In this document: positions 30,686 to 60,586 of the stretch, piece after piece
Position numbering within the stretch: position 1 is the first letter of the stretch
Layout of the letters: every line of letters starts with the position of its first letter
Assembly (NCBI RefSeq): GCF_030122845.1
Contig: NZ_CP126084.1
Location: forward strand, 4,526,001 to 4,590,000
Origin: Paenibacillus woosongensis
GTDB lineage: Bacteria; Bacillota; Bacilli; Paenibacillales; Paenibacillaceae
Direction of reading: 5' to 3'
Length of the DNA: 64,000 nucleotides
Notes under the pieces: model-generated
Database searches by the model: none
What the model saw: only the letters and a program-made list of their open reading frames with translations
Told to the model about the DNA's origin: nothing
Position numbers and translations under genes: made by a program

Positions 30686-30892
30686 GACGGATTGTAATAT
30701 GAAGTGCGACAGGTGCCAAGAGAATAACAAATAGTCCATGGCTGATTCGTGTAGAATGAAGTTACCACACCACCCCTATACAAGGAGAATCAGAACATGA
30801 ACTACACTCATTTTAGCATAGTCGAACGTAGTCAGATAGAAGTCCTACGTTTGGGATGGACTAACCGCGAGATCGGTAAAAATCTTGGGAGA
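30686..30892 (+). mobile_element. 207-bp left fragment of an IS30-family element
   Basis: This stretch is a nearly identical inverted copy of 44697-44902, the left end of the IS30-family element downstream of the biosynthetic cluster. It begins with the terminal inverted repeat GACGGATTGTAATATGAAG and includes the first codons of the transposase from 30797 (MNYTHFSIVERSQIEVLRLG). It stops at 30892, where it is joined to an ISL3 fragment. Reading is toward the cluster, opposite to the other copy. Confidence 0.85.
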
Positions 30893-31469
30893 AGGACTGA
30901 TCTCGAACCAGATTCAAGAAGTCTGCTGCCATATGTCTCCGGCATTCATCCGAGGCATTGAAACGTTTTTCCCGAAAGCCGAGATCACTTTTGATAAATT
31001 TCATGTGATGAAATTAGCCAACGAAGCCGTAGATGAAGTACGTAAGAATGAGCAGAAAAAGCAACCAGAACTAAAGCACACAAAATATATTTGGCTAAAA
31101 AACGAAAGTAACCTGAATGATACACAACGAGAAACGTTACTTCGCCTAAAAGACCAGCATTTAAATACAGGTCATGCTTACCGTTTGAAGCTTGCTCTCC
31201 AAAATTTTTGGTCGGAGCCGCATATCTTTGCGGATATATACTTAGGGGAATGGATGAGCTGGGCAAAGCGTTCCAAACTGGAGCCCATGATTAAGTTAGC
31301 AACTACCATTAAACAGCATGAAGAAGGCGTTTTACGCTGGTTTCACAGCAAAATGACGAATGGTTTCCTAGAAGGACTAAATGGGTTGGTTCAAGCAGCT
31401 AAACGGAAAGCAAGAGGCTACCTTGCTTTGTATATTCCAATAATTGCGTCACAGATTTTTATATTATGA
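30893..31469 (+). pseudogene. Truncated ISL3-family transposase
   Basis: C-terminal half of an ISL3 (IS204/IS1001/IS1165) DDE transposase: CCHMSPAFIRGIETFFPKAE, ITFDKFHVMKLANEAVDEVR, KYIWLKNESNL, and the ending with NGFLEGLNGLVQAAKRKARG where the last catalytic acid lies. The N-terminus is missing; the open frame extends artificially into the IS30 fragment. It stops 10 bases before the convergent ATP-grasp gene's stop. Non-functional. Confidence 0.85.
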
Positions 31470-31479: not shown

Positions 31480-32709
31480 TCATACGACCTCAAACACAAC
31501 TTTTTTTGTTATTTTATCCATAATTTCATAGAGTTCAATATAGCTATTTGCTTTTACCATAAAATAACCTATGCGATCCCATGAATTTCTAAATTTATTA
31601 ATTTGGTCTCCAGGCTTTACGCTTATATTCCAATTAACCACATGTTCTTCGTCATTTAATATGTCCAAGTTTTTAATTTCTTTTAGTTTTCCTGGTTCAG
31701 CATAAAAAAAACGCACAGCAGTTAATGATCTGTGTTCAAAATTTATATTTAAATTGTTGTTCTGTAACATCATATCAATAAAAGTTCTTCTAAAGTTAAA
31801 ACCATATGAATTGGTAATCAATTCAGATATGTTATCCCCGGGTATTCTTGCAGCACATTCTACAAGATGAGGAATCTCTTGCTTAAGAATCCATTCCGAA
31901 TGCAAAACACCGTTTTCAACCTCCGCTGCTTCAATAATCTTTTCTTTATAATATTTTATTTTGTTTTTTACAGCTTCAGATACTTGACCAGGAACAATGT
32001 GTCCTGATTCTACAAAGTACTTGCCTAAAAATTTGTCCTTCAGCGTAATATTAAAAAAAACAATCTCACTATTCTTTACAAGACATTCTACACTAACTTC
32101 ATCACCTTCAATAAAATCCTCTGCTATGTACTGATGCACAATTTCTCTATCTGGTACCAAAACATTTTCGGTTGAATGCATCGTTTCTTCATAAGCACTC
32201 TCGATCTCTTCAACTCTGTTGATTTTAATAACCCCAATAGAAGCGTGTCGTGTCGCTGGTTTGAAAATAATCGGATGTCCTATGAAAAATAATTTTAATT
32301 GATTCATTGAGTTTATTTCTTGATAACGGGGTTGAGGAATTCCAATATCCTCGCAAAGATCTCTCAAAAGTATTTTATTAGTGAATACCCTCGCACCCTT
32401 ATCTCCGACTCTTGGAAGTCCCAAATATTGGGCTGCTTTATTAGCCGCCTTAACGCAATATTCAAATCCGGGAACTACTGCGTCAAATTTAATTTTTTTA
32501 GACCAAGCTTTCACCACATCCATATATTCTTCAGAATCGTGGTACTTGCTTTCAATAATTTGACTAATCATCTCAGAACTAAACGGCTTCATTTTTCTTA
32601 ATACATCAGGCTCTTCAATTATAAAAAAGCGAAACTCATCTTCTTCATTCATTTCAACTAAATTTTTAATAAACATGGTATATCTACCGATTTGTAATAT
32701 ATTTTTCAT
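31480..32709 (-). CDS. ATP-grasp ligase (third of three paralogues)
   Basis: A cytoplasmic ATP-grasp enzyme of about 410 residues, expected to join a carboxylate (activated as acyl phosphate) to an amine. Its parts are an N-terminal Rossmann-like domain (FDAVVPGFEYCVKAANKAA; then LGLPRVGDKGARVFTNKILL), the ATP-binding fold with HPIIFKPATRHASIGVIKIN (lysine and glycine-rich loop), EDFIEGDEVSVECLV, and the metal-binding end HLVECAARIPGD. The ATG at 32709 has GGGGG eight bases upstream and overlaps the CitX-like gene by 26 bases; another ATG lies two codons before. It resembles the enzymes at 37513 and 39974, so the pathway probably makes up to three amide bonds. Last gene of the operon. Confidence 0.85.
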   Translation of the reverse strand: MKNILQIGRYTMFIKNLVEMNEEDEFRFFIIEEPDVLRKMKPFSSEMISQIIESKYHDSEEYMDVVKAWSKKIKFDAVVPGFEYCVKAANKAAQYLGLPRVGDKGARVFTNKILLRDLCEDIGIPQPRYQEINSMNQLKLFFIGHPIIFKPATRHASIGVIKINRVEEIESAYEETMHSTENVLVPDREIVHQYIAEDFIEGDEVSVECLVKNSEIVFFNITLKDKFLGKYFVESGHIVPGQVSEAVKNKIKYYKEKIIEAAEVENGVLHSEWILKQEIPHLVECAARIPGDNISELITNSYGFNFRRTFIDMMLQNNNLNINFEHRSLTAVRFFYAEPGKLKEIKNLDILNDEEHVVNWNISVKPGDQINKFRNSWDRIGYFMVKANSYIELYEIMDKITKKVVFEVV

Positions 32710-33259
32710 TTTCATAACCCCCATTGCACAAGATTGGATTTGAAAGCAACGAGTAACAATCTTCATTCATACATTTAAAGTGCTGAAAATCTAAAACTAC
32801 CTGCTGAAGCAATTTTTCAATCGGATGCGCTTGAATAAACGCACATTCTTTAGCTGTTTTTTCACAAATGAAACATTTACGAGGAGATAATTGCAACATT
32901 TTACGGCTTATTTTCCTTCCACTTTCATTAAACACATCAATATCCCAATACTTGCTGAGTATATTTTCACATTCTATTTCTATACATAATCTTTTAAGTA
33001 AATACGGATCCTCATTTATTTTAAATAAACCTATCATTCCTAAAGTGCTATTATGGAACATCATATTTTTTATTTCTATATTATATATGTAAAGATCTTT
33101 TATTATTGTATTAATTCCTAAACTGGCCAATTCGTAGCTTGGATAAATGGTTTTATTCGCTCCAGGCATATTAACAGTAAACTGAATCAGCGCACTATCA
33201 TCTCTTAAGGAACTACGCAAAGCTTGGAGCTTTTCCCTTTGCTCTAAGATTTGCTTCAT
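32684..33259 (-). CDS. citX: CitX-like apo-carrier phosphoribosyl-dephospho-CoA transferase
   Basis: A 191-residue homologue of CitX, which transfers 2'-(5''-triphosphoribosyl)-3'-dephospho-CoA onto a serine of the citrate lyase acyl carrier protein. The C-terminal signature is clear: YWDIDVFNESGRKISRKML and LSPRKCFICEKTAKECAFIQ followed by a histidine (AHPIEKLL). The ATG at 33259 with AAGGAGGT ten bases upstream is chosen; upstream codons overlap CitG by more. Adjacent CitG, CitD-like and CitE-like genes support the assignment. Here it should modify the small carrier at 36106, not a complete citrate lyase, since CitF is absent. Confidence 0.85.
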   Translation of the reverse strand: MKQILEQREKLQALRSSLRDDSALIQFTVNMPGANKTIYPSYELASLGINTIIKDLYIYNIEIKNMMFHNSTLGMIGLFKINEDPYLLKRLCIEIECENILSKYWDIDVFNESGRKISRKMLQLSPRKCFICEKTAKECAFIQAHPIEKLLQQVVLDFQHFKCMNEDCYSLLSNPILCNGGYENEKYITNR

Positions 33260-34157
33260 CTTGTCCGATACCTCCTTGAATATATCCGGTCTCCCAAAGT
33301 TGTAAAGCAAGGGAAACCGCAACCAAATCTGCCGATCCGCCAGGACTCAAAGACTTTTTTTTAAAATCCCATTCCATTTCCTCTAGCAGCTTTTTACCTT
33401 GAACCGTAAATACTCCACCTAGATCAAGTACCTTTTGGGCATAAAGCTGGACATATGAAATACGTTTGTAATCAAATTCACGATTAAGCAACGTTGTGTC
33501 CTCAGTCACAGACATTAACGATAACAATGTATGGATAATCGCTTCGCGCAAATCACCTTTTCGCTCCAACGCGTCCTTTAGCGCTGGAAGACCTACGTCC
33601 AACACATGATTATATCCGTCTTTAACTTCGCCTCGAACGCCTTGGATTCCCCATTGCCTATATGCTCTTAAGCCCACTGTAGGACATTTCTCGGTTATCC
33701 TTTTTGCTTCGCTTAACTGCATGAGCATATCGCGCTCGGCAATTTTACTGACATAATAGCATACCTGAGCAGGAACCAAGCTATTATGCCTTATATAGCA
33801 AATACCCGCCGCCGCACATAACAATACGCCATGGAATATCATCCCTTTATGCGTGTTAACTCCCCCCGTTGCTTCAAACATATCCTTCTCTGCTTGTAAA
33901 CCTAGCTCTTGAAGCAGGGGATACAATTGCGACAAGTTTGCTTCTAAGGCAAATCTTATCCCGGTCTCCGCCGCTTGAACAAAGTAATCTGCTATAGCTA
34001 AACCGCTATGAATAAACGAATAGATATCCATGTCGTTGTGAGAACCACTATCTAGAGCACTAACTAGGCCGGGTGTTGGCCAACTGATTGCCTCAGCCAT
34101 GACGGAAAAGTTCATTTTACGTCCGATCCATTTAGCGATTAAAACTGTATCAGGCAT
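33213..34157 (-). CDS. citG: CitG-like triphosphoribosyl-dephospho-CoA synthase
   Basis: A 314-residue helical protein of the CitG/MdcB family, which condenses ATP and 3'-dephospho-CoA, releasing adenine, to make the prosthetic-group precursor of citrate lyase and malonate decarboxylase. Signature segments are PGLVSALDSGSHNDMDIYSF (the GxHxDM motif) and EATGGVNTHKGMIFHGVLL, with the GVNTHKG motif fully conserved. It overlaps the aaRS-like gene by 8 bases and CitX by about 47, so these are tightly coupled. Its presence shows that the cluster makes its own prosthetic group. Confidence 0.9.
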   Translation of the reverse strand: MPDTVLIAKWIGRKMNFSVMAEAISWPTPGLVSALDSGSHNDMDIYSFIHSGLAIADYFVQAAETGIRFALEANLSQLYPLLQELGLQAEKDMFEATGGVNTHKGMIFHGVLLCAAAGICYIRHNSLVPAQVCYYVSKIAERDMLMQLSEAKRITEKCPTVGLRAYRQWGIQGVRGEVKDGYNHVLDVGLPALKDALERKGDLREAIIHTLLSLMSVTEDTTLLNREFDYKRISYVQLYAQKVLDLGGVFTVQGKKLLEEMEWDFKKKSLSPGGSADLVAVSLALQLWETGYIQGGIGQDEANLRAKGKAPSFA

Positions 34158-35367
34158 AAACTAGATCCCTTACCGCTTCTGGCCAGAGCTCGCAATTTAA
34201 GCCATACTGTTGTAAGAAACTCCAGACACATCTTTCAATACCTAAGCCCATACAACCTGACCAAGTCTCTTTCTGATTTGCCATATTAAAATTAAACGTT
34301 TTAGAGAAAAAATCGCCGTGTGTATCAAAAGAAGCTATAGATAGGCTATCTTGTTTATAAGGAATTTCCGCTTTCACTTCTACTTTTATATTTGAGGGAA
34401 TGTTAAAATTGTTACGGGCTTGATCATCGATAAAAAAGGGATCATTTGCATGTGCACAGTGACCTTTAATACCCAGTTTCTCCATCCAGTCAATCGTCCA
34501 TTGTAGGATTTTCCTTTTATGCTCAATTACAAATTCAGGAGTTCCAATAAATATGAATTCACGCATGGAAAATTGGTTCAATCTTTCCATCATATAAATC
34601 CTTTTTCCTTCGTTCCGATAACATTCTCCGCGGATATTATAAATTTGATTATGTTCCAAATTCTGATTTTCCAAACTAAAGTAAATTTTGAAGCATGGCG
34701 CACTTTGTAAAACATAGTTTGGCGAATCCAAGTGTAGATTTACATCATTCGGTAATTTTCCGTTATTACTAACTGTTTTTGCTGTAAATTGGTCTAGTGA
34801 ATCATTGTTCAAATGGCTAGGAAAAAAAAGATGTTTTGGTGAGCTTTGAAAATAATTCATTTTTTCCATATAGTATTTTGGAATTAAAGAATTATGTTTA
34901 ACCTCTGTTACATTATGCAGTCGCTCTGATATATAGCTAACATAACTTGTATCAAACCATTCAAGAAGACGGATAATTTCCACAGAAAATTGTAAATCCT
35001 GCTCCCGTATCATTTTGATCCAACCCGTTCGAAGTAGTTCCGCTGAAATGTCTGAATCATTCACAGGAAATGTACAGGAGCAAAGATCGTTACTCTCAAA
35101 ATGTTCTTCATTGCTAACTGATTCATAATCATTTGCAACAGATTGTTGTTCTTTGGCATACCAATGATGCGTTAGAAAACGATCTATTTCATTCCTGATT
35201 TCTCCGATTTTTTTGGTTTCAAGATAGTGCACTGTGACCTTCCTATGATCAACCTGATCCACATATACTTTATGGACGGATGCATGTTGCAGTAATTGAT
35301 AGCAAAAACGTTTAATCCCCAAATCATTCAGCGAACTATTTAACTCAAATTGATATTTTTTAAACAT
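34150..35367 (-). CDS. Class II aaRS-like protein, probable amino acid:carrier-protein ligase
   Basis: A 405-residue protein with the catalytic core of a class II aminoacyl-tRNA synthetase related to SerRS. Motif 2 is at about 248-271 (ECYRNEG, then ERLNQFSMREF), motif 3 at 371-380 (GCMGLGIERC) with the ATP-binding arginine. C224 (SAPCF), E270 and C372 lie where the zinc ligands of atypical SerRS and the amino acid:[carrier protein] ligases are found. No tRNA-binding arm is evident, but a distinct N-terminal 150 residues is. Known relatives activate a small amino acid as AMP ester and load it on a phosphopantetheinyl carrier. Its place between CitE- and CitG-like genes suggests the CitD-like carrier is the acceptor. 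The amino acid is not known; diaminopropionate is one candidate. Confidence 0.75.
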   Translation of the reverse strand: MFKKYQFELNSSLNDLGIKRFCYQLLQHASVHKVYVDQVDHRKVTVHYLETKKIGEIRNEIDRFLTHHWYAKEQQSVANDYESVSNEEHFESNDLCSCTFPVNDSDISAELLRTGWIKMIREQDLQFSVEIIRLLEWFDTSYVSYISERLHNVTEVKHNSLIPKYYMEKMNYFQSSPKHLFFPSHLNNDSLDQFTAKTVSNNGKLPNDVNLHLDSPNYVLQSAPCFKIYFSLENQNLEHNQIYNIRGECYRNEGKRIYMMERLNQFSMREFIFIGTPEFVIEHKRKILQWTIDWMEKLGIKGHCAHANDPFFIDDQARNNFNIPSNIKVEVKAEIPYKQDSLSIASFDTHGDFFSKTFNFNMANQKETWSGCMGLGIERCVWSFLQQYGLNCELWPEAVRDLVYA

Positions 35368-36109
35368 AGGTACCCTTCCTTTCAGAATATACCTCTAAAC
35401 CAATTTTTATTTGGTCAGGATGGATAATCGAACGACCTGTAAATCCCAAATTTCGAGAGAATTCGCAATCATTCCGATAACCTTCTAAGTCTTTATATTT
35501 CATAAAAGTGGTGTCAAAACTGTAAAGAGAGTTTTCGTTGCAAAATTGGCATATTTTCTGCTTTGCAAAAAGTACTTCCTTTTGAGGATCATCACTATTT
35601 AACTTAACATCATCATAGTAATCGCCTCCGCCGAGCGTAAACGCATAAATATTATCACTACATTGGTAAATACGCTCCAAATTATTTAATCCTTCCTTGC
35701 TTTCAATCATGATTTCATAAAGCGGTTTATAATCATCATCTGACTCTTTTGATATAAACCTCCAATATTCGTCAATTTCTAGTAAATCCTCTGCTTTATT
35801 TACCATCGGTATGCGTATTCGTGTTGGTCTATTTTCCAACAATGCCTCAAAATCCGCTTTCCAGTGATCGGTATAAACACTGTTGATTCTAACAATTAAA
35901 TTTAAATCCAGATCCTTAAACTCGCTAAGTGCTCTTTTCACTAGACTTCGGGCTTCAATTTTTTTGTTCTCAGGAGTCCCGTCCTCCAGACAAAGGATAA
36001 TATTCTTAAGTCCGAGAGTCATTGCTTTTTCAATATATCCCGGTTTGTATCCAGCAACATAAAATATAACCCGTTCATTATCAGTAATTTGAGAAATTTT
36101 CTTTCTCAT
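35360..36109 (-). CDS. CitE-like HpcH/HpaI family lyase/aldolase
   Basis: A 249-residue TIM-barrel enzyme of the citrate lyase beta (CitE) family. Conserved parts are VAGYKPGYIEKAM, CLEDGTPENKKIEARSLV (LEDxxxxxK..AR), VRINSVYTDHW, MIESKEGLNNLERI with the metal-binding glutamate, TLGGGDYYDD with the metal-binding aspartate, and GFTGRSIIHPDQI. Citrate lyase beta cleaves citryl-carrier to acetyl-carrier and oxaloacetate; relatives act as malyl- or citramalyl-CoA lyases. It is shorter than typical CitE (about 290). It overlaps the CitD-like gene by an ATGA junction. A retro-aldol or aldol reaction on a carrier-bound acyl or aminoacyl group is inferred; the substrate is unknown. Confidence 0.82.
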   Translation of the reverse strand: MRKKISQITDNERVIFYVAGYKPGYIEKAMTLGLKNIILCLEDGTPENKKIEARSLVKRALSEFKDLDLNLIVRINSVYTDHWKADFEALLENRPTRIRIPMVNKAEDLLEIDEYWRFISKESDDDYKPLYEIMIESKEGLNNLERIYQCSDNIYAFTLGGGDYYDDVKLNSDDPQKEVLFAKQKICQFCNENSLYSFDTTFMKYKDLEGYRNDCEFSRNLGFTGRSIIHPDQIKIGLEVYSERKGTYV

Positions 36110-36390
36110 CGTATAGTCCCCCCCTCTTCTTCCTTAATAGCCGTTGCAGCAGCGACCAATAAGGCAGCAGCTTCACATCTCCCTTTGATAACCCATTGGT
36201 TTGCTCCGTTATAGTAAACCTTCGGGTTGAAACGTACTAAATTAAACTCCTTTAAAAAGCTAATAACTACCTGCTCAATGAGCTCGTTATCAATCTCCGG
36301 CACTAGATTACTAATATAAACACCTTGATTCTGATCAGTAAACTCTAATAATAAGTCACTAGATTCAATCGACCCTACCATGATATTCAT
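36106..36390 (-). CDS. CitD-like acyl carrier protein
   Basis: A 94-residue protein resembling the gamma subunit (acyl carrier) of citrate lyase. The segment VGSIESSDLLLEF matches the AGTxESSDxxV motif whose serine carries the phosphoribosyl-dephospho-CoA arm; the rest (LVPEIDNELIEQVVISFLKE, then WVIKGRCEAAALLVAAATAI) follows the family's beta and helix layout, with the usual GALDCxIxAR changed to NQWVIKGRCEA. It overlaps the GH88-like gene by 26 bases and CitE by 4. Together with CitG and CitX it implies a working prosthetic arm. No alpha subunit is encoded, so its loading route must differ from citrate lyase. Confidence 0.78.
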   Translation of the reverse strand: MNIMVGSIESSDLLLEFTDQNQGVYISNLVPEIDNELIEQVVISFLKEFNLVRFNPKVYYNGANQWVIKGRCEAAALLVAAATAIKEEEGGTIR

Positions 36391-37516
36391 TTGCTCGCCA
36401 CCTTAGATTTACATTTTGTAAATTTAATATTGTTTCAAGTAAGAAGTAATCGCCCCATATTTGAGATTCCCCTTTTGTGAAAGTAACGCTCTTTGGAGTA
36501 CTGGCATGTAGCAGAATGCCTTCATGGTCTCTGACGGAACTAGCCATATAAGTATTAGTGATCAACGTGTCCAGTATACTTAATCCAAGATCTGCATAAG
36601 CTTTTTTTTGCGATTTGTCGTCCAAGTGAGAAGCTAGCTGTAGCAATGCAGAAGCTACGATACTAGCGGCTGAAGCATCCCGTAACGTAGTCTGGTGTTT
36701 AATGAGCATGTCCCAGTGAGGAATCAAACTATCATCCGTATTTTTTTGGTAGAAGGACGTAAGCTTGTCAATCACATCCAAATATTCAAAATGACCTAAA
36801 TTCAAGAAAGCTTGCACCATCCCGTATATCGCCCAAGAATGCCCTCTTGACCACACGGAATTTGCTTCTGCAGCATTTTTGTTGTAGATCTCTATCTCCC
36901 TATCCTCCCCGTTAAACTTCACATATTCACAAGTTCTTCCATCACTAAATATCATCGTTCGCAGAATGTTGTCGATACAGCCCTCAGCGGCTATTCGGTA
37001 TTTGCTGTTATCGGTCTCTCTGAATGCCCAGAGCCATAAGCCAATATTCATCATGGCATCTATCCCTTGATAGTGCTCACCGTCTGCTAACCAATTGCAT
37101 TTTAAATAACCGCCTGGCATCAATGAGTCAAATAGGCTATCAGCCGCCTCTAGGGCTACGGTTCTATATTTCGAATTTCCAGTCAACTTATAACCCGTAA
37201 TATAGGAAAAAATAAAAAGATAACCAATATCCTGAAAGTCCCCGTGATATTTATATGGTTCGAGGGCTGTTGTCGCCTTGTCTGCTGATTCTTTCCAGAA
37301 TTCGTCTTGATCCATTGCAAACATTAGCCAAAGCTGTCCAGCAAAAAAACCATTAGACCATTTGTCCTCCCATGACCATTTTCCATTGCGGGTTACAAAA
37401 GGGAATAAAACCTTCCCCCCAGTTACATTCAACTGGTTCCAGATACTGATCTCTTGTTTCAATTGTCTTCTGACGAAATCGAGCAACAGATCCATCTTCT
37501 CCTTCAAAGTGTTCAT
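36365..37516 (-). CDS. GH88-type unsaturated glucuronyl hydrolase-like protein
   Basis: A 383-residue (alpha/alpha)6-barrel protein of the GH88 family, distinct from the GH105 enzyme at 666. Hallmarks are WSNGFFAGQLWLMFAMD, GDFQDIGYLFIFSY and QGIDAMMNIGLWLWA (the two aspartates used in catalysis), SVWSRGHSWAIYGM, PHWDM and RDASAASIVASALLQL. Family members hydrate the double bond of an unsaturated uronic acid, releasing it from glycosaminoglycan or pectin fragments. No signal peptide. It overlaps ATP-grasp (ATGA) and CitD-like genes, so it is part of the biosynthetic operon rather than a catabolic one. It may act on an enol-ether or dehydrosugar intermediate of the product; this is inference. 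Confidence 0.82.
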   Translation of the reverse strand: MNTLKEKMDLLLDFVRRQLKQEISIWNQLNVTGGKVLFPFVTRNGKWSWEDKWSNGFFAGQLWLMFAMDQDEFWKESADKATTALEPYKYHGDFQDIGYLFIFSYITGYKLTGNSKYRTVALEAADSLFDSLMPGGYLKCNWLADGEHYQGIDAMMNIGLWLWAFRETDNSKYRIAAEGCIDNILRTMIFSDGRTCEYVKFNGEDREIEIYNKNAAEANSVWSRGHSWAIYGMVQAFLNLGHFEYLDVIDKLTSFYQKNTDDSLIPHWDMLIKHQTTLRDASAASIVASALLQLASHLDDKSQKKAYADLGLSILDTLITNTYMASSVRDHEGILLHASTPKSVTFTKGESQIWGDYFLLETILNLQNVNLRWRANEYHGRVD

Positions 37517-38745
37517 GAACTCACCTCGAATTTGACTGTTTCATTAATTTCAGTAATCGTCTTTTCCAACTGTTCATAGTTTGTACTCTGAAGCACTACA
37601 TACCCCTTTCTTGCCCAATTGCTGGTTAATGGCTCAATGAGTTGACCCAGTTCAAACCCCGACTCTATCCGTTTTATGCTCGGAATATTCCCTAGAACAT
37701 CGAACCCCTTGACGGAAATCAACTTTCCTGAGGGTGGAGTAAAATAAATAGCTGCAGCGACATGACAAAATTGTGAGGGAAACTGCACTTCAAGCCCCAA
37801 TAAGACATTAATATAGGCTTTAAATAAGTTCAGATCGTAAGCTAACTCAAACAATTCAGGTATTAGCCCTCCAGGGGCACGACCAGCGCATTCAATCAGA
37901 AATGAACCTTGTTCGTTTATGATCCACTCCGAATGTAAAAGCCCATTTTGAACAGCAAGCCCCTGTATTAATTTTTGTTTAGCATCGATAACTTCTTCTC
38001 TGATTTCCTCATGTATATCCCCCGGAATGATATGTCCGATTTCCACGGAATACTTGCCGACCGTAGTGAGCTTCTTTGTAATATTATGAAACAACACTTG
38101 ACCATCCTTGACAAAGGACTCGACACTGATTTCAAAGCCTTCCACATAATCCTCCGACATGTATTCCCATATTAATGGTCGTTGTGTAACAACTAAATTC
38201 CCTTCTGTTGCATTCGTCGTTTCAACCCAAGCCAATGCAAGGTCATCCTTGCTCTCAATTTTGATAACACCTGTACTTGCCTGTCTGTTCACAGGCTTAA
38301 GCATCAAAGGCTTACTCTGATAAAATTGAACTAAATCTTCAAACTGCTCAATTTTCGCAAATCTAGGCTGCAATATTCCTAGCTTGGATGCTACGGTCCT
38401 AAGCTTATACTTATTAGTCAACGAATCGGCTGCGACATCTCCCAAACGTCGTAAACCGAGCCTCTTAGCTATTTCATTCACCGCAATAACGCTATATTCT
38501 CTTCCAGGAATGACTGCATCGAAGCGAATTTCCTCATTCCAACGGACAGCGGTATCCACACAGTCAAGGGACTGCTGGTACGAGCCGATTCTTACCTCTT
38601 GACATATCGATGAGTGGAAACTCAAATAATTATTTTCGTATAATTCCTTTTCCTCTAAAATAAATAAGATAATATCATCCGCCATATTTTCTATAATATT
38701 AACAATTTTCGGATTCAACCCAATTACCAGGACATTCTTAGTCAT
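37513..38745 (-). CDS. ATP-grasp ligase (second of three paralogues)
   Basis: A 410-residue ATP-grasp enzyme. The N-terminal domain contains FDAVIPGREYSVIAVNEIAK and LGLRRLGDVAADSLTNKYKL; KPLMLKPVNRQASTGVIKIE is the nucleotide-binding core; EDYVEGFEISVESFV and FLIECAGRAPGG the metal-binding end. It should form an amide or peptide bond between small molecules with ATP cleavage to ADP. The ATG has an AGGAGG site about 15 bases upstream, further than usual. It overlaps the GH88-like gene by 4 bases. Sequence is closest in pattern to the copy at 39974 among the three. Confidence 0.87.
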   Translation of the reverse strand: MTKNVLVIGLNPKIVNIIENMADDIILFILEEKELYENNYLSFHSSICQEVRIGSYQQSLDCVDTAVRWNEEIRFDAVIPGREYSVIAVNEIAKRLGLRRLGDVAADSLTNKYKLRTVASKLGILQPRFAKIEQFEDLVQFYQSKPLMLKPVNRQASTGVIKIESKDDLALAWVETTNATEGNLVVTQRPLIWEYMSEDYVEGFEISVESFVKDGQVLFHNITKKLTTVGKYSVEIGHIIPGDIHEEIREEVIDAKQKLIQGLAVQNGLLHSEWIINEQGSFLIECAGRAPGGLIPELFELAYDLNLFKAYINVLLGLEVQFPSQFCHVAAAIYFTPPSGKLISVKGFDVLGNIPSIKRIESGFELGQLIEPLTSNWARKGYVVLQSTNYEQLEKTITEINETVKFEVSS

Positions 38746-38752
38746 AACTATA

Positions 38753-39970
38753 TTATCTGTCCTCCTTGATAACTATTGTTTGTAATTGTTTTTTTGATAG
38801 GAAAAGCTTATACAATACAGAGATAAGCAACGCAAATGTAGCTAATATTAACCAAAAAATCCATAATTCATTTTGCTTATTTAACCAATTATAAGTTGCG
38901 CCACCTATTAAATTGCCAAGTGCTCCGCCGATACCAGCTCCTAATAGCGCGAACCCATAATAACTGCCTGCTGTTCTTTCTGTAGCCAAATCTCCAGTAA
39001 TAGTATCAATCGTAGGTACTACCAACATTTCACTTAAAGTGAATAAAAACGTGAATAAAAGTAAAATAACTATTCCTGGAAATGCTGTGAGACATAAAAA
39101 AGCAAACGACATAAAGAGCGTACCGATCAACAATATAGTAGATTCTGTTAACAAATTACCTGTTTTTTTAATTAAATAATACTGAAGGATAACGACAAGC
39201 AATCCATTGAATGTAAACATAAACCCAATGTAGTCACTGGTACCTCCTACATCTTTCACATACAATGGAACTGTCAAAGAAAACTGATTATACAAAAACC
39301 AAAATCCAATACCGTTCATGGTCATTAGCAGAAACTTACGATCTTTTAATACAGTTTTAAATGTCCATAATGGCATCTGATCATTTTTATTCTCTTCTTC
39401 CGTGATGGTGATATCTCGAACGAAAATAAGAACCATACAAAGATATATGATAAATACGCCAATAGTAGATAAAAATACGAAATAGAACGAAGCTTTATAA
39501 AGGAAGCCTCCCAAAATAGGACCAATGGATGCTCCAATGTTTGTCAGAGTACTTCTTAGTGCAAAGACTTCTTTTCTTAGCTCTCCTGAACTCTTATAGA
39601 TGATTACCTTCGTGGCAGGCGCATAAATAGCCGCTCCTATACCAACCAATACCGCCGATATTATAAATAGCACCAAACGATCTGAAGCTAGATAGACAAC
39701 ATAGCCAACTATCCGAATAGCTAACCCGAGAATCAGTAATTTTTTTGTACCTACAAAATCGCTTATTATGCCTCCCAAAAAAGATAATCCCTGCATTGAA
39801 ATAATGGAACACATCAAAACAACGCCAATTTGTGAAGCATCTAAACCTTTAAACGTATTTAAATATAAGGCCAGAAATGGGTTGAGCATATAATTTCCAA
39901 TATTAGTGAGCAAAATACCAAACAAAATAACTTTGATATCTGCGTTTAGGCGCGAGAAATGGCTTAGCAC
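38753..39970 (-). CDS. MFS transporter of the cluster, probable product exporter
   Basis: A 405-residue major facilitator protein with about 12 membrane helices. GIISDFVGTKKLLILG is the loop 2-3 motif A and IGAAIYAPATKVIIYKSSGE the helix 4 region; NIGASIGPILGGFLYK resembles the drug-antiporter motif C. It starts at a GTG preceded by AGGTGAG. Placed between two ATP-grasp genes in the operon, it most likely exports the end product and so gives self-protection; uptake of a precursor is possible. Confidence 0.85.
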   Translation of the reverse strand: MLSHFSRLNADIKVILFGILLTNIGNYMLNPFLALYLNTFKGLDASQIGVVLMCSIISMQGLSFLGGIISDFVGTKKLLILGLAIRIVGYVVYLASDRLVLFIISAVLVGIGAAIYAPATKVIIYKSSGELRKEVFALRSTLTNIGASIGPILGGFLYKASFYFVFLSTIGVFIIYLCMVLIFVRDITITEEENKNDQMPLWTFKTVLKDRKFLLMTMNGIGFWFLYNQFSLTVPLYVKDVGGTSDYIGFMFTFNGLLVVILQYYLIKKTGNLLTESTILLIGTLFMSFAFLCLTAFPGIVILLLFTFLFTLSEMLVVPTIDTITGDLATERTAGSYYGFALLGAGIGGALGNLIGGATYNWLNKQNELWIFWLILATFALLISVLYKLFLSKKQLQTIVIKEDR

Positions 39971-39973
39971 GTA

Positions 39974-41203
39974 TCACTCACCTACATGAAATATAATGTT
40001 TGACTCAATTTGATCCAGTTTCTCCTGTAGGTCAATCATTTGATTACTCTTGATCATAAAATAACCGACTCGATCCCAGGAAGAATTGAAATTAGTAATG
40101 ATCTCCCCTAAAGATACATTGATTTGGTAACTAATTATACTTTCATCACTTTTTAATATATCTACTCCTTTGAGGTCGATTAATCTTCCCGGATTCGGTC
40201 TAAAATATCGAATTCCGGCATATCCGTCGCATAAAGAAGCAACATTAGGATGTCTCCCCATAAGCACTTGTAAAAAAGCTTCATATAAATTAAAATGATA
40301 TACCTCATGTATCAGTTCAGGAATTTTGTCACCTGGTGCCCTTGCAGCGCATTCTATCAGCATCGGACCTCCGGTAGTCATCTTCCATTCAGAGTGGAAT
40401 AACCCGAATGAAACCTCAAGTCCTGAGAGCAGCCTTTCATTAGCCTCCAACAGACTTGATTTTTTTTCAAAATCTAGAGGAGCCGGCAATATATGTCCAG
40501 TTTCTGCAAAATACCTTCCTCCAACCGTCTCTTTCAATGTAATATTATTGAAAATGACCTGACCATCCAACACGAGTGATTCTACTGAGTACTCTACCCC
40601 CTCCAAATAATCTTCAACAATGTACTCCCAAAAGAGGCTTCGTTGTACTAGCCTATTTTTTTCTGACGCATTAATAGATTCGTTCCATGCACTTTCTATA
40701 TCTTCACTTTTTTCAATCTTGATTACCCCGACAGATGCTCTGCGATTTACAGGCTTAATAATGATAGGTCGATCGTGATAAAAACGTGCGACATCAACTT
40801 CACTACTTACTTTAGCAAACTCCGGCTGAGGAACCCCGATCTCTCTACAGGCCTGACGAAGTCTATATTTATTCGTAAAAGCTGCGATTGCTTTTGCACC
40901 AGGAGTACGCAATCCCAATCGAGCTGCTGCTTTGTAAGTTCCTTGAACTGCATATTCCATACCCGGTACGATCACATCAAAACCAATTTCCTGAAACCAT
41001 TGGAAAACTTGATCTACAACTTGCTCACTCTGCTGGTATTCTCCGAATCTGACCTCTTGCAAAATTTTACTCTTATATGCTTGTGGATTGGCCTCATATA
41101 GGTCCTGTTCTTCCAAAATAAATACCTCATAGCGGTTATCCGCACACTCCAATGAGTGCAAAAAGGCTTTATTTAACCCTACCATCAATACTTTTGTCCT
41201 CAC
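39974..41203 (-). CDS. ATP-grasp ligase (first of three paralogues)
   Basis: A 409-residue ATP-grasp enzyme. FDVIVPGMEYAVQGTYKAAA and LGLRTPGAKAIAAFTNKYRL form the N-terminal part; RPIIIKPVNRRASVGVIKIE is the ATP-binding core, followed by EDYLEGVEYSVESLV and MLIECAARAPGDKIPEL. The GTG at 41203 is chosen because AAGGAGG is ten bases upstream; seven extra codons would precede it otherwise. It follows the SbnB-like gene by 36 bases, so it may be the ligase that first uses diaminopropionate. Stop codon lies 3 bases before the MFS start. Confidence 0.87.
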   Translation of the reverse strand: MRTKVLMVGLNKAFLHSLECADNRYEVFILEEQDLYEANPQAYKSKILQEVRFGEYQQSEQVVDQVFQWFQEIGFDVIVPGMEYAVQGTYKAAARLGLRTPGAKAIAAFTNKYRLRQACREIGVPQPEFAKVSSEVDVARFYHDRPIIIKPVNRRASVGVIKIEKSEDIESAWNESINASEKNRLVQRSLFWEYIVEDYLEGVEYSVESLVLDGQVIFNNITLKETVGGRYFAETGHILPAPLDFEKKSSLLEANERLLSGLEVSFGLFHSEWKMTTGGPMLIECAARAPGDKIPELIHEVYHFNLYEAFLQVLMGRHPNVASLCDGYAGIRYFRPNPGRLIDLKGVDILKSDESIISYQINVSLGEIITNFNSSWDRVGYFMIKSNQMIDLQEKLDQIESNIIFHVGE

Positions 41204-41239
41204 ACCATAAAAGCCTCCTTCCACAATGGTGGTAGTACT

Positions 41240-42211
41240 TTAATCAAGCTTTTTACCATTTCCATATTTTTGTGCAGTCTGAAGATAAAACGTTCCAACT
41301 GCAATATCAAATACAGCCATTCCCATCGGATTAAACATCACGGGTTGATCAATGGCTATGTCCCTAAAAGCCTCACGGCAAACAATATCTAGTATGGAGC
41401 GGGTATCTTCCTTACGAAGCCCTTTTTCTTTGTGCATCATTTCGATATCGGTTTTTTCCCGGCAAACCTCTTCCCAATCGTCAACAATGATTGAATCCTT
41501 GACATATCTAAACATTGAGGTACAGTAATCCCTCAAAGACACATTCAAGAGCAGCGCCCCCTGCTTAGGTGGTTTATTTATGTATGGCGCCTCAGAGACG
41601 GTACAAGTGATGAAAATGTCACTTTTGTCATATGCCTCTTCCCACTTCTCAACGATATGAACCCTCGCCTTGTCAAAGAACTCTACTTCGCTCATCTTGA
41701 TCACCGATCTTATATCATATAAAAAAACATTTTCGATTCGTTCACTAAACAAATTTTCACATACTTTTAAATGATACCGACCGATAGGTCCCCATCCAAT
41801 GATTCCAATATTTATTTTCTTGAGCGAGCGGGCATCATCAAAATATCTCATGATTAATCCACTCACTCCCGCAGTTCTAATCACACTAAGCAAAGCACCA
41901 TTTATTAAGCCAATCATTTGACCAGTATAAGAATCATTTAATATAACGACGCTATGCGCTCTTGGCAGTCCCACCTTAATGTTATCTGGAAAACTCGCTA
42001 TCCACTTTATCCCTGCAGTTTCTATCCCCCCTCCTACAAAGGCAGGCATAGCGATGATTCTATTTTTAGGATTCCTATACCTTAAGTAAGGCTTTACCGG
42101 TTGCACGTATTCATTATTGTTCAAACAATAGACTGTATTTTCTATCACATTTATAATCTCTGACCAATCGATACCCAGTTGGATGATATCCTTTTCATTT
42201 AAATATAGCAT
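41240..42211 (-). CDS. sbnB: SbnB-like ornithine cyclodeaminase family dehydrogenase
   Basis: A 323-residue member of the ornithine cyclodeaminase/mu-crystallin family. The substrate-side segment RNPKNRIIAMPAFVGGG and KWIASFPDN precede a Rossmann domain with NIGIIGWGPIGRYHLKVCE as cofactor motif, and VDDWEEVCRE near the end. In staphyloferrin B synthesis, SbnB oxidatively hydrolyses N-(1-amino-1-carboxyl-2-ethyl)glutamate with NAD to 2-oxoglutarate and L-2,3-diaminopropionate. Directly downstream of an SbnA homologue, this is the most likely activity here. The start has AGGAGG. Simple ornithine cyclodeaminase is a less likely alternative. Confidence 0.85.
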   Translation of the reverse strand: MLYLNEKDIIQLGIDWSEIINVIENTVYCLNNNEYVQPVKPYLRYRNPKNRIIAMPAFVGGGIETAGIKWIASFPDNIKVGLPRAHSVVILNDSYTGQMIGLINGALLSVIRTAGVSGLIMRYFDDARSLKKINIGIIGWGPIGRYHLKVCENLFSERIENVFLYDIRSVIKMSEVEFFDKARVHIVEKWEEAYDKSDIFITCTVSEAPYINKPPKQGALLLNVSLRDYCTSMFRYVKDSIIVDDWEEVCREKTDIEMMHKEKGLRKEDTRSILDIVCREAFRDIAIDQPVMFNPMGMAVFDIAVGTFYLQTAQKYGNGKKLD

Positions 42212-42348
42212 TGCACTCCTCCTAATTTAGTCCTGCAATATACTTCGGATGTTCCTAGACTACTGCATGTCTAAAGATCCATGTCTAAATCGTGTATTCA
42301 TTTTTCACGTTATTCATTAGCCCTTCCGAAGGTAATTTATTAGTGAGA

Positions 42349-43317
42349 TTATATTTGGACTCTATCAAAGTATTTTTTTAAGTCATGAACCCATTCCTCG
42401 TTATAAATCGTGCTAGCGTATCTGTCTCCACGGTCCGGAAACACAACAACCACTTTAGGTTTCTTTTCAAAGTTTCTACCAGCAAAGTATTTCATCACAG
42501 CCCCCAATACGGATCCGGATGAACCTCCAACAAAAACCGAATGTTCTTGTAAAAGATAATGACACATATTAATTGTCGTCAACTCGTCTACCATAACGAC
42601 ATCGTCGATGACCGCATGGGTTAAAATGTCAGGGACCATACTAGAACCAATACCTGGAATGTGTCTTTTCTGGGGATTTCCACCAAAAATAACCGACCCT
42701 ATAATATCGACTGCAATAATCTTCGCTGACGGATTTACCTCCTTAATTTTCCGCGAGACTCCTGTAATCGTCCCTCCGGAGCTGACTCCCATAAAAAGAT
42801 AATCAATATCCGAAATTTCTTGAACAATTTCATTGCCTAAAGTATAAAAGTACGCTTCCGCGTTATATAAATTTCCATATTGATTTACCCAATATGAGTT
42901 AGGAATCTTCTCAACCAATTCCTTTACTTTTTCAATTCGCTTAAGCAAATAGCCACCGGAACTATCAGGTTCCTGAACCTTGATCACCGCTGTACATAAA
43001 CTTTGAATAATCATTTCATTAATTGGAGAGATGAGGGGATCTATCACGCAATAGAACTTTAGTCCATAATGCTTGCAATATGTTGATAGAGAGATACCGA
43101 AGTTGCCTGAAGAAGATTCGATAATCGTGGTGTCCTTATTTATTATGTTCATTTCTAATAACTTATTAATAAGGTAATTTGAAGCTCGATCCTTAACGCT
43201 ACCAGTTGGGTTGTAAAACTCTAGTTTAGCAAAGAGATCAATATTGCTTAATTTATTTGAATTAATCTGAATAACAGGCGTTTCGCCAACCTTCTCAATA
43301 ATTCGCTCGTAGACCAT
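42349..43317 (-). CDS. sbnA: SbnA-like PLP enzyme for diaminopropionate synthesis
   Basis: A 322-residue cysteine-synthase-fold PLP enzyme. NPTGSVKDRASNYLINKL holds the PLP lysine (about residue 42), SSSGNFGISLSTY the substrate loop, MGVSSGGTITGVSRKIKE the phosphate-binding loop and VFVGGSSGSVLGAV the end of the site. SbnA joins O-phospho-L-serine and L-glutamate into the intermediate used by SbnB. The frame opens 80 codons upstream with a hydrophobic non-family stretch; the ATG at 43317 has GGAGGG and gives the family length. It is the first gene of the operon, 137 bases from sbnB. O-acetylserine sulfhydrylase is the alternative, but the sbnB partner argues against it. Confidence 0.87.
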   Translation of the reverse strand: MVYERIIEKVGETPVIQINSNKLSNIDLFAKLEFYNPTGSVKDRASNYLINKLLEMNIINKDTTIIESSSGNFGISLSTYCKHYGLKFYCVIDPLISPINEMIIQSLCTAVIKVQEPDSSGGYLLKRIEKVKELVEKIPNSYWVNQYGNLYNAEAYFYTLGNEIVQEISDIDYLFMGVSSGGTITGVSRKIKEVNPSAKIIAVDIIGSVIFGGNPQKRHIPGIGSSMVPDILTHAVIDDVVMVDELTTINMCHYLLQEHSVFVGGSSGSVLGAVMKYFAGRNFEKKPKVVVVFPDRGDRYASTIYNEEWVHDLKKYFDRVQI

Positions 43318-43469: not shown

Positions 43470-43717
43470 CTACTATTGGGTGCTGTAGGAATAGGAAAAA
43501 AAGCATATGGTCACCGCCTTGGGAGTCGAGGCATGCAGACAAGGACAGTCGGTACAATTTTACCGCGTCTCGGATTTGGTGGCGGTGTTACAGGAGAAAT
43601 TCGCAGCGAGCATACTGACCCGCTTTCGAGAAAAGCTAAGTAAGCTAGACTTACTCATTCTCGACGAGCTTTGTTATGTCCCTTTTAGCCAGACAGGAGC
43701 CCCTAATAAAAGGTTGC
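43470..43717 (+). pseudogene. Fragment of an IS21-family IstB ATPase
   Basis: The plus strand reads LGAVGIGKK (a damaged Walker A), then MVTALGVEACRQGQSVQFYR, VSDLVAVLQEKFAAS and LDLLILDELCYVPFSQTGA (Walker B and sensor region), all typical of IstB, the AAA helper of IS21 transposition. It breaks off at about 43717 into unrelated sequence, and no IstA is present. A dead relic beside the promoter of the biosynthetic operon. Confidence 0.8.
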
Positions 43718-43767
43718 CCCAAAACAAGTTATCGGGACAAAGGACGGGCCATGATATTTATTAAGTA

Positions 43768-43813
43768 GTCCCATAGTTTATTTACTGGTTCCACACTTTT
43801 TTATCACCGGACA
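43768..43813 (+). mobile_element. Orphan right end of a Tn7-like element
   Basis: Two consecutive 20-bp units (43768-43787 and 43788-43807, the second GTTCCACACTTTTTTATCAC) are followed by CGGACA, ending at 43813. The same unit-plus-terminus layout is found at 52910-52955 (ending CAGACA) and the same units at 63922-64000. The ACA end matches Tn7-type TGT...ACA termini. The rest of the element is not seen; it is followed within 16 bases by the IS30 element. Confidence 0.6.
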
Positions 43814-43829
43814 GCAGCAGTTGTTAGAT

Positions 43830-44902
43830 GACGGATTATCAAGCTAAGTGCGACATGGCATCCATGAAGGATTCGTGGGCAGGTTTCCAATTAAGCCATT
43901 TCCTGGGACGGTGGTTGATGAGGTTGACGGCATGAGCCAACTCCTTATCGGTTACCTCAGCAAAATCCTTACCCTTGGGAAAGAATTCCCGAAGAAGTCC
44001 GTTGCCGTTTTCATTAGAACCTCGTTGCTAGGAAGAATAGGGATCAGCAAAGTAGACAGATAGGGCATGAAAGGCTTCTAGCGCAGCATAGCAGGCAAAT
44101 TCCTTTCCACGATCAGCTGTAGCCGTAAGGAATGTCCCTTGTGGGAACTGTGAAACTGCAACACTAAAGGCAACCTCCATCGAATACGCTGTTCGGTCAG
44201 GCATCTTTATAGCTAAATATAGGCGTGTCTTTCGTTCTATGAACGTTGTAGCACAAGCACGACTCTTTCCTCTACTAGAGACAACCGTATCTAGCTCCCA
44301 GTGTCCGAATGTAGTTCGCTTCCTCACTACTTTGGGTCTTTCGCTAATTGTTTTGCCTACAAGGAAACGTCCACGTGTCTCTTGGGGCTTGCGGCGTTTC
44401 CCTTTATGCCGAAGCATTTTTACTTCACCCGCAGCAAGGCGTCCAGCATAAAGCCAACGATAGATCGTCTTGAAGCACACGAACGATTTCCCGTTCACTC
44501 ATCTATGCTCGGCGATTTGTTCGGGCGATCAAGTCTGCTCTAGGTTCTCTTCAGTTCGCTCGCTAACTCAGGCGTGAACCGACCCTTTGGCTTACAAGAA
44601 GTCCTCCGTTTCCTTATAAGCAGCCTGTGCAACTTCTGCTACGTAGGTTCCGTCCTTGCTTCCGCGCTTCTTTTCTCTAGCTATAGCAGAGTGGTGTCTC
44701 CCAAGATTTTTACCGATCTCGCGGTTAGTCCATCCCAAACGTAGGACTTCTATCTGACTACGTTCGACTATGCTAAAATGAGTGTAGTTCATGTTCTGAT
44801 TCTCCTTGTATAGGGGTGGTGTGGTAACTTCATTCTACACGAATCAGCCATGGACTATTTGTTATTCTCTTGGCACCTGTCGCACCCATATTACAATCCG
44901 TC
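43830..44902 (-). mobile_element. Degenerate IS30-family insertion sequence
   Basis: A 1073-bp element bounded by imperfect inverted repeats, GACGGATTATCAAGCTAAG at 43830 and GACGGATTGTAATATGGGTG on the opposite strand ending at 44902. Transposase pieces on the minus strand: start at 44792 (MNYTHFSIVERSQIEVLRLG), a middle piece from 44498 (GHWELDTVVSSRGKSRACAT, with catalytic acids), and the end around 43855-44020 (LAHAVNLINHRPRKWLNWK). A stop codon (TAG in place of a TGG) near 44030 and frameshifts between 44498 and 44592 make it inactive. Its left 206 bp recur inverted at 30686-30892. Confidence 0.87.
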
Positions 44903-45570
44903 GTTTGAAATAACGCTCAGAGTTCAAATCAAAAACTTTCGTTACCTCATCCACTCCGACGGCTTTGTCCCCATTTAATTCCTGGTGACACATGTACAAT
45001 GCTTTCTCATCCAGTAGGTGGATCAAGCTTGTAAACTGCTCTTTGGGTCGTTCTATTGCTAATTGTGCTATCTTAACAAGTTTTGTTTCCAATTCGTTAC
45101 CACCTCTGAGTGTGGGAATTGTGTCCTTTGTCAAAGTCTTCAGAGGTGCTTCGTTTTCTCCACCGCCATTACGCAGCTTCATCGATACTACTCAGCCATC
45201 TCTATCTCTCATTTGCTTCCCTTGCTTGGTTTTCGCTTGTACGGCATCCCCACTGATTCCAGGAAGAGAGAGGGTCTCCCGGGTTGCCGCTAATTCTCCG
45301 TTATAATGTGCCAAGCTCTTAGACTCCGGAGTGTCCATTCAAACTCACCATAACGCTTGAACGAATTTCGCCTTCTGTATGTGTAACTACATCGGCCTTT
45401 CTCGACTAATTTTTCAAGGCTCGATCACTTCAGCTAACGCTTTCGGCCCATTATTTTGCCGTTCTACGCTTAAGGCTACCCGTTTCCAAGAACTAGCTAC
45501 AGGACTGCTGGTTAGGCTTTATCCTGATGGGACTCCCGCCCACTAGAATAATGACCTTGCCCGGCCGCAC
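44903..45570 (-). mobile_element. Truncated group II intron
   Basis: On the minus strand, GTGCGG at 45570-45565 looks like an intron 5' end, followed by about 380 bases of GC-richer structured RNA sequence. The reverse-transcriptase/maturase N-terminus then starts near 45182 (KLRNGGGENEAPLKTLTKDT; LETKLVKIAQLAIERPKEQF; LNGDKAVGVDEVTK). The protein is cut after about 85 residues, near 44930, and the IS30 element begins at 44902. The catalytic YADD region and domains V-VI are missing, so the intron is dead. Confidence 0.8.
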
Positions 45571-51861: not shown

Positions 51862-52178
51862 GTTTATAATATACACTTAGGTATATATATACATTAATAT
51901 ATATTAGGGAAATATTTCCCTCCTAAGTTATTTTCTTTAACAGAAATATTCAGTCCCCGCCTGGCACCGTCAAATTAGCATTGTTATCGCTTCTTCATCC
52001 GCTGACAAGAACTTTGCAACTTCATTTATTGTTGCGTCTGAAGAGATGATTTCGATACCGGTTACGATATGCTATATTTCCAAGCCAAAAAAAGAGCAGA
52101 GTGTTTATAACTGCCCCTTTGCCGGCCATTTTTGCTCTCGTAGAAAACCTAGAGGTAAGAAACCTCAGGTATTTTCCT

Positions 52179-52454
52179 CTACGCCTCTATTGGCCAATCT
52201 TTATATTTTTCTATTGCTTGAGCAATGATCGCATTCGTCGGGAACCGCAATTGCTTGCCTTTTTTCTTCTCCCGAATAAGCACCATTTTCATGGCATTGC
52301 TGACCTTTGCCACGACATCAGCACGATGCGGACTCGTCCAGTTGATTTGAAATCCCTTCTTCATTGCCGCGACCACTTTGCGAATCAAGCCTGAAATGAA
52401 CTCATTGGAAGAGGCATCATTACCCCTTATTCTCGCCGCCGACGATTTATACAT
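52179..52454 (-). CDS. Small protein resembling a type I restriction HsdR C-terminus
   Basis: A 91-residue reading frame whose ATG overlaps the stop of the XRE remnant as TAATG. The part FQINWTSPHRADVVAKVSNA and FPTNAIIAQAIEKYKDWPI resembles the helical C-terminal end of HsdR (DUF3387-like), without the nuclease or helicase domains. It could be a decayed HsdR fragment or a small independent gene coupled to the regulator. The 51877-52178 stretch between it and ArsR has nothing else I recognise. Confidence 0.4.
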   Translation of the reverse strand: MYKSSAARIRGNDASSNEFISGLIRKVVAAMKKGFQINWTSPHRADVVAKVSNAMKMVLIREKKKGKQLRFPTNAIIAQAIEKYKDWPIEA

Positions 52455-52815: not shown

Positions 52816-52850
52816 TCGTAAATTCCCGTGTACATTTATTCACACAAATT

Positions 52851-52884: not shown

Positions 52885-52888
52885 AGAT

Positions 52889-52955: not shown

Positions 52956-52960
52956 TCATA

Positions 52961-60557: not shown

Positions 60558-60586
60558 AATTAAGTGACACCTTTAAAGGATACGCT

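What the first reader, a model, noticed from the sequence alone, without database searches (positions are those of the whole stretch)
31480..43317. Undescribed-looking biosynthetic operon combining diaminopropionate synthesis, a citrate-lyase-type carrier system, an aaRS-like ligase and three ATP-grasp enzymes
Twelve closely spaced or overlapping minus-strand genes bring together parts I have not seen combined: SbnA/SbnB (L-2,3-diaminopropionate), CitD, CitE, CitG and CitX homologues, a SerRS-like amino acid:carrier ligase, three ATP-grasp ligases, a GH88 protein and an MFS pump. The gene families are read directly from sequence. That they make one exported, amide-rich small molecule is inference from co-location. 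Using the phosphoribosyl-dephospho-CoA arm for secondary metabolism would be new to my knowledge.
Basis: partly seen in the sequence, partly recalled or inferred. Interest (0 to 1): 0.95.

Follow-up and report, generated by a model that had tools for sequence, protein, structure and literature searches.

The report
Amino-acid factory built on citrate-lyase carrier
A rare twelve-gene bacterial operon, whose six core genes keep one order in nine genomes, joins homologues of diaminopropionate-making genes to a citrate-lyase-type carrier and a tRNA-synthetase-like ligase, and is predicted to build a small peptide-like molecule by loading an amino acid onto that carrier, which would be a new use for it.

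Summary
Twelve co-directional genes (43317-31480, minus strand) encode SbnA, SbnB, three LAL-type ATP-grasps, an MFS protein, GH88, CitD, CitE, a SerRS-like amino acid:carrier ligase, CitG and CitX. GH88-CitD-CitE-ligase-CitG-CitX keep one order in all nine genomes whose close ligase relative could be read in context (four divergent lineages; GH88 is split by an insertion in one), always with SbnA, SbnB and at least one ATP-grasp in the cluster, while the rest shuffles. It is not citrate lyase: of 21 CitX genomes among 388 Paenibacillaceae, 13 have full CitF and the 8 cassette genomes have none. The cassette CitE keeps the family's metal and arginine residues but lacks a C-terminal segment. 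The ligase keeps zinc-site residues and class II motifs; its clade has Asp348 in 22 of 22 distinct rows, where 34 of 35 other rows have Asn. Best reading (inferred): the ligase charges an amino acid, likely diaminopropionate, onto the phosphoribosyl-dephospho-CoA arm of CitD; CitE and GH88 remodel it; ATP-grasps make amides; the product is exported. Product, substrate and arm are untested. Nine searches of the held library listed no paper describing it.

The parts
42349..43317 (-). SbnA homologue (first step of 2,3-diaminopropionate synthesis)
   Evidence: TIGR03945 391.5 bits, over cut-off; ATG 43317 with GGAGG upstream; in the cluster in 9 of 9 genomes
41240..42211 (-). SbnB homologue (second step; by recalled SbnB chemistry releases diaminopropionate and 2-oxoglutarate)
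   Evidence: TIGR03944 317.6 bits, cut-off 326.9; in the cluster in 9 of 9 genomes
39974..41224 (-). ATP-grasp ligase 1 (LAL type)
   Evidence: PF13535 72.1 and PF18603 LAL_C2 41.4 bits
38753..39970 (-). MFS exporter-like protein
   Evidence: PF07690 142.2 bits; nearest NCBIfam model MdtH, 126.7 vs cut-off 469
37513..38745 (-). ATP-grasp ligase 2 (LAL type)
   Evidence: PF13535 72.1 and LAL_C2 50 bits
36365..37516 (-). GH88-like protein (unsaturated glucuronyl hydrolase family); core gene 1
   Evidence: PF07470 34.3 bits; PDB 1vd5 E 4.4e-31, Asp96 and Asp153 aligned to the two (recalled) catalytic Asp of UGL; both Asp in 8 of 8 unbroken copies
36106..36390 (-). CitD-type carrier; core gene 2; GSIESSD with predicted attachment Ser10
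   Evidence: PF06857 28.3 bits; Ser10 in 9 of 9; one such protein per genome in 9 of 9
35360..36109 (-). CitE-type enzyme, C-terminally short (249 aa); core gene 3
   Evidence: PF03328 125.6 bits; Glu42, Asp43, Arg74, Glu136, Asp163 in 9 of 9; C-terminal segment of three canonical CitE absent
34150..35367 (-). SerRS-like (class II) amino acid:carrier ligase; core gene 4
33213..34157 (-). CitG (triphosphoribosyl-dephospho-CoA synthase family); core gene 5
   Evidence: PF01874 228.1 bits
32684..33259 (-). CitX (phosphoribosyl-dephospho-CoA transferase family); core gene 6; the raw ORF began at TTG 33322
   Evidence: PF03802 122.8 bits; only CitX found in the genome; ribosome site and ATG
31480..32715 (-). 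ATP-grasp ligase 3 (LAL type); raw ORF to 32766
   Evidence: PF13535 68.7 and LAL_C2 64.6 bits; start
30885..31469 (+). ISL3 transposase remnant at the downstream border
   Evidence: PF01610 190.3 bits
43507..43764 (+). IS21 IstB remnant at the upstream border
   Evidence: PF01695 47.5 bits

Best explanation
The operon is a conserved, likely biosynthetic cassette in which a SerRS-like ligase would charge an amino acid, likely L-2,3-diaminopropionate from SbnA and SbnB, onto the predicted phosphoribosyl-dephospho-CoA thiol arm of a CitD-type carrier, where the CitE-type enzyme likely forms a metal-bound enolate and joins it to (or splits it from) a 2-oxo acid. CitG and CitX would make and attach the arm at Ser10 of CitD. 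The GH88-like protein, with both catalytic Asp kept, probably adds water to (or takes it from) a C=C bond next to a carboxylate of the intermediate; this is the least certain step. The LAL-type ATP-grasps would then couple the new amino acid in ATP-driven amide bonds, and the MFS protein would export the product. Shown: genes, families, gene order, residues, absence of CitF. Inferred: every substrate and every reaction.
For: Core order GH88-CitD-CitE-ligase-CitG-CitX in 9 of 9 genomes with a close ligase relative and readable neighbourhood, in four divergent lineages (ligases of the other three 39-49% identical to the window's), while ATP-grasps (1 to 3 seen), exporter (MFS in 8 of 9) and SbnB position vary. 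SbnA and SbnB in the cluster in 9 of 9. One CitD-type carrier per genome, 9 of 9. CitF absent in 8 of 8 Paenibacillaceae cassette genomes, present in 13 of 13 other CitX genomes. Ligase: Cys225, Glu270, Cys372 (zinc site), Arg251, Glu253, Arg379 in all 25 Asp348 rows; folds nearest to methanogen SerRS and aa:carrier ligase. In a tree of 57 rows built without column 348, the 22 Asp348 rows are one branch, support 100/99; of the 35 others 34 have Asn and M. barkeri SerRS has Ser. Lys227 also marks the clade (25 of 25 against His, Pro or Tyr). Column 348 aligns to Ser437 of M. barkeri SerRS, recalled as a serine-contact residue, so an acid there fits a side-chain amino group. CitE metal/Arg residues in 9 of 9.
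Against: No biochemistry. Asp348 may pair with Lys227 instead of the substrate. Asn348-type ligases also occur near such genes: L060 is beside an SbnB gene (no SbnA within its 19.5 kb, but five SbnA-family matches in its genome) and L074 lies about 3 kb from an SbnA-like gene. Trp369, conserved in the clade, is also in M. barkeri SerRS. SbnA-like genes are common (153 of 295 genomes), so only same-cluster linkage counts. Six of the nine genomes are one close group. CitE lacks the C-terminal segment with the (recalled) catalytic Asp of citramalyl/citryl lyases. GH88 is split by an insertion in L. macroides. CitD scores low against its family, SbnB and the ligase are under their NCBIfam cut-offs.
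Confidence: 0.55

Rival explanations
1. The ligase loads glycine or another small amino acid onto CitD, CitE makes a beta-hydroxy amino acid (for example with glyoxylate or 2-oxoglutarate), and diaminopropionate enters only later as a partner in an ATP-grasp amide bond.
For: The solved carrier-ligase relatives are titled glycine:[carrier protein] ligase; an enolate at glycine avoids loss of the beta-amino group (chemical reasoning); SbnA/SbnB are in the cluster but outside the six-gene block.
Against: The B. japonicum glycine enzyme is an Asn348, Pro227 row; the cassette clade has Asp348 and Lys227 throughout.
Confidence: 0.3
2. CitD carries a non-amino acyl group made or cleaved by CitE, and the SerRS-like protein works apart from it, for example charging a conventional carrier or a small molecule.
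For: An aaRS-like gene of the wider class neighbours a conventional phosphopantetheine carrier (L044), and the P. pinihumi cluster holds a PP-binding protein as well as CitD.
Against: No PP-binding match among the twelve window genes; in the window CitD, CitE and ligase genes overlap by 4 and 8 bases and are neighbours in 9 of 9; one CitD per genome.
Confidence: 0.12
3. A decayed or divergent citrate or malonate catabolic operon beside unrelated biosynthetic genes.
For: CitD, CitE, CitG and CitX are citrate-lyase families. CitC and malonate decarboxylase subunits were not searched genome-wide.
Against: CitF absent in 8 of 8 against 13 of 13 canonical; canonical CitX 173.7-190.5 bits, cassette CitX 94.7-125.7; core order and catalytic residues kept across four lineages.
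Confidence: 0.03

Closest known systems
Amino acid:[carrier protein] ligases (Bradyrhizobium Bll0957, PDB 3mf1/4h2s)
   Same: Class II SerRS-like catalytic core, zinc-site residues, motifs 2 and 3; would work alike, activating a free amino acid for a small carrier
   Different: Neighbouring carrier is CitD-type, not a phosphopantetheine carrier; about 100 extra N-terminal residues; Asp348 and Lys227 instead of Asn and Pro
Citrate lyase (CitCDEFXG)
   Same: CitD, CitE, CitG, CitX homologues; predicted prosthetic arm
   Different: No CitF; CitE C-terminally short; ligase, SbnA/SbnB and ATP-grasps present; CitX scores in a separate lower band
Staphyloferrin B / SbnA-SbnB diaminopropionate pathway
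   Same: SbnA and SbnB homologues
   Different: No NIS synthetase among the twelve genes; amide bonds would come from ATP-grasps
Dapdiamide / bacilysin ATP-grasp dipeptides (DdaF, BacD; recalled)
   Same: LAL-type ATP-grasp ligation; diaminopropionate in dapdiamides
   Different: No carrier-bound amino-acid step is known there (recalled)
Ter operon CitE-like lyase with ATP-grasp (PF15617, PF15632; recalled)
   Same: CitE-like enzyme beside an ATP-grasp
   Different: No CitD/CitG/CitX or aaRS-like ligase (recalled); only matches below the Pfam cut-off here

Membership tests
Citrate lyase | CitF alpha subunit | tested here: not met
   0 of 8 Paenibacillaceae cassette genomes, 13 of 13 other CitX genomes; L. 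macroides only two weak partial matches on other contigs
Citrate lyase | CitD, CitG and CitX families | tested here: met
   Pfam over cut-off; in NCBIfam CitX is over, CitG and CitD are under their equivalog cut-offs
Citrate lyase | Full-length CitE with C-terminal segment | tested here: not met
   Cassette CitE ends before the segment present in the 3 canonical CitE compared, of 13 canonical loci; NCBIfam citE 128 vs cut-off 443.4
Citrate lyase | CitC ligase | not tested
   none of the twelve genes matched it; genomes not searched for it
Malonate decarboxylase | MdcA and decarboxylase subunits | not tested
   none of the twelve genes matched them; genome not searched
Amino acid:carrier protein ligase | Class II core with zinc site (Cys, Glu, Cys) and motifs 2/3 | tested here: met
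Amino acid:carrier protein ligase | Family score over NCBIfam cut-off | tested here: not met
   NF005479 113.7 vs 357
Amino acid:carrier protein ligase | Phosphopantetheine carrier encoded beside it | tested here: not met
   neighbouring carrier is CitD type; no PP-binding match among the twelve genes
Amino acid:carrier protein ligase | Charges a carrier and not tRNA | not testable with these tools
   no assay
Methanogen-type SerRS | Family score over NCBIfam cut-off | tested here: not met
   NF002120 145.3 vs 611, TIGR00415 106.1 vs 489.55
SbnA/SbnB diaminopropionate synthesis | SbnA and SbnB pair | tested here: met
   SbnA over cut-off, SbnB at 97% of its cut-off; both in the cluster in 9 of 9
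LAL-type ATP-grasp ligases | ATP-grasp_4 plus LAL_C2 | tested here: met
   3 of 3 in the window
GH88 unsaturated uronyl hydrolase | Two catalytic Asp | tested here: met
   Asp96 and Asp153 align to the UGL pair; PDB 2ahf differs from 1vd5 by Asn at the first
GH88 unsaturated uronyl hydrolase | Acts on unsaturated uronosides | not testable with these tools
   no assay

The most novel reading that the evidence does not exclude
A new thiotemplate: free amino acids are charged by a stand-alone aaRS-like enzyme onto the phosphoribosyl-dephospho-CoA arm, until now tied to citrate lyase-type enzymes, and a citrate-lyase-type enzyme does carbon-carbon bond chemistry on aminoacyl thioesters to build unknown amino acids that ATP-grasps stitch into an exported peptide.
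Probability: 0.4. Interest if true: 0.92.

Novelty: new variant of a known kind. Interest (0 to 1): 0.78.

Why it matters
If right, a prosthetic group known from citrate lyase and malonate decarboxylase also serves amino-acid assembly, aaRS-like ligases have a second kind of carrier, and CitE chemistry extends to aminoacyl thioesters. It gives a search handle (Asp348-type ligase next to CitD and CitX without CitF) for unknown small peptides in Paenibacillus, Lysinibacillus and, by a source's label of one relative, Vallitalea.

Tried and rejected
Plain citrate lyase: rejected. Anti-phage defence: no PADLOC match at E 1e-5 for the 9 of 12 proteins given. Translation-type SerRS: family scores far below cut-off. 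RNA regulator: Rfam on 27000-50000 found only a group II intron piece at 45314-45536; promoter and terminator scans were at shuffle level (39 vs mean 45.0; 9 vs mean 10.1). Plasmid copies: 86 records match the ligase, none over at least 80% of it, all under 60% identity. A genome scan with peptides of the window protein found nothing; the alignment scan found five loci. A class sample of 398 genomes and a phylum sample of 398 gave no close relative besides the window's own genome; 32 genomes of the L. macroides genus gave only that one. The metagenome relatives (P0002, P0004-P0014) and the Vallitalea one (P0003) were not read in context. Paper searches listed nothing describing this system; one listed 20 of 41 papers and 70 was too broad to tell (15 of 12,612 listed). 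The library lacks most subscription papers, and the two source papers on SerRS and the ligase that I asked for are not held. CitC and malonate decarboxylase subunits were not searched.
Full report
What is there. Twelve minus-strand genes run from SbnA (ATG 43317) to a third ATP-grasp (stop at 31480). Start codons of CitX and of the last ATP-grasp are better placed at 33259 and 32715/32709.

A conserved module. The ligase is rare: 14 proteins at E 1e-3 in about 5.8 billion, the window's own included, by a search that needs shared 5-residue words. In 394 Paenibacillaceae genomes 50 hold an aaRS-like match at E 1e-30, and 8 of these are close (E below 1e-130); with Lysinibacillus macroides that makes nine genomes. 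In all nine the order GH88-CitD-CitE-ligase-CitG-CitX is kept, with SbnA, SbnB and at least one ATP-grasp in the same cluster. In P. pinihumi SbnB lies about 10 kb past CitX in the same direction. Surroundings differ: window SbnA-SbnB-AG-MFS-AG-[core]-AG; P. tritici, silagei, piscarius and three unnamed relatives SbnA-[core]-MFS-AG-AG-SbnB; L. macroides AG-AG-SbnA-SbnB-[core]-MFS-AG with GH88 split by what looks by eye like an IS66-type element; P. pinihumi PP-binding-SbnA-[core]-amidohydrolase-Rieske-(no Pfam match)-AMP-binding-AG, then ABC-transporter-like ORFs by eye. One of the two ATP-grasps in the P. tritici group is only weakly related to the window's. The nine genomes are four lineages, not nine independent cases.

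Not citrate lyase. CitX occurs in 21 of 388 Paenibacillaceae genomes: 13 at 173.7-190.5 bits and 8, the cassette genomes, at 94.7-125.7 bits. All 13 have full CitF (723.7-734.4 bits); none of the 8 has one at E 1e-3. In L. macroides two CitF-model matches of 29.6 and 28.9 bits cover only positions 310-423; I take them for CoA-transferase-type proteins, which was not tested further. Each of the nine genomes has one CitD-type carrier at E 1e-3. The cassette CitE keeps Glu42, Asp43, Arg74, Glu136 and Asp163 in 9 of 9, shared with human CLYBL and malyl-CoA lyase, but stops before the C-terminal segment of the three canonical CitE compared.

Mechanism, marked. Shown: families, order, residues, missing CitF. 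From recalled chemistry of the families: SbnA/SbnB make diaminopropionate and 2-oxoglutarate; CitG/CitX make and attach the arm; aa:carrier ligases form aminoacyl adenylates and thioesters; CitE forms a metal-bound enolate; ATP-grasps make amides. Inferred: that these act in series on one amino acid. The GH88 role is open; its two catalytic Asp are kept in 8 of 8 unbroken copies and an Arg of the (recalled) uronate-binding site in 9 of 9, so a hydration-type step on an unsaturated acid is the best guess.

Mobility. The operon lies between an ISL3 remnant (30885-31469) and IS21/IS30 remnants and a group II intron piece (43507-45536). The window ligase is nearer to P0002 and to P0003, which a source labels Vallitalea longa, than to those of other Paenibacillus. 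GC is 0.355-0.405 in the 2-kb bins from 32001 to 42000 against 0.413-0.565 over 1-28000, but 52001-64000 is as low (0.335-0.357), so GC says little. Horizontal transfer is likely.

Novelty. The parts are known; the combination was not in the papers listed by nine searches of the held library (12, 23, 24, 46, 47, 50, 51, 70, 74). PMC2922099, of which I saw the abstract start and passages, describes class I aaRS-like proteins with ATP-grasps in predicted peptide operons; the words citrate and class II do not occur in it. I file the finding as a new variant of carrier-protein amino-acid biosynthesis because the key reaction is unproven; if aminoacyl-CitD is shown, it becomes a new kind.

Noticed in passing
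L007 5397-8975 / L126 7247-10825 (Lysinibacillus macroides): The GH88 gene of the cassette is split by an insertion that looks IS66-like by eye; a transposase-like ORF also lies among the ATP-grasp genes nearby.
   Followed up: partly
L060 9157-11418: An Asn348-type aaRS-like gene is directly followed by an SbnB homologue, in a cluster with KAS III-like ORFs (by eye); its genome has five SbnA-family matches.
   Followed up: partly
L044 8246-9840; L045 7815-10243: Other aaRS-like ligases neighbour a phosphopantetheine carrier (Pfam) or, by eye, an acyl-CoA dehydrogenase and a large NRPS/PKS-like protein; such matches at E 1e-30 occur in 42 of 394 Paenibacillaceae genomes besides the 8 cassette genomes.
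   Followed up: partly
L008 6449-6805 and 12482-17097: The P. pinihumi version adds a PP-binding carrier, an amidohydrolase, a Rieske protein and an AMP-binding enzyme, so both carrier kinds sit in one cluster.
   Followed up: partly
window 44028-45536: IS30-like transposase pieces and a group II intron fragment upstream of the operon.
   Followed up: no
G000:C1:1232272-1233186: A second SbnA homologue elsewhere in the window's genome.
   Followed up: no
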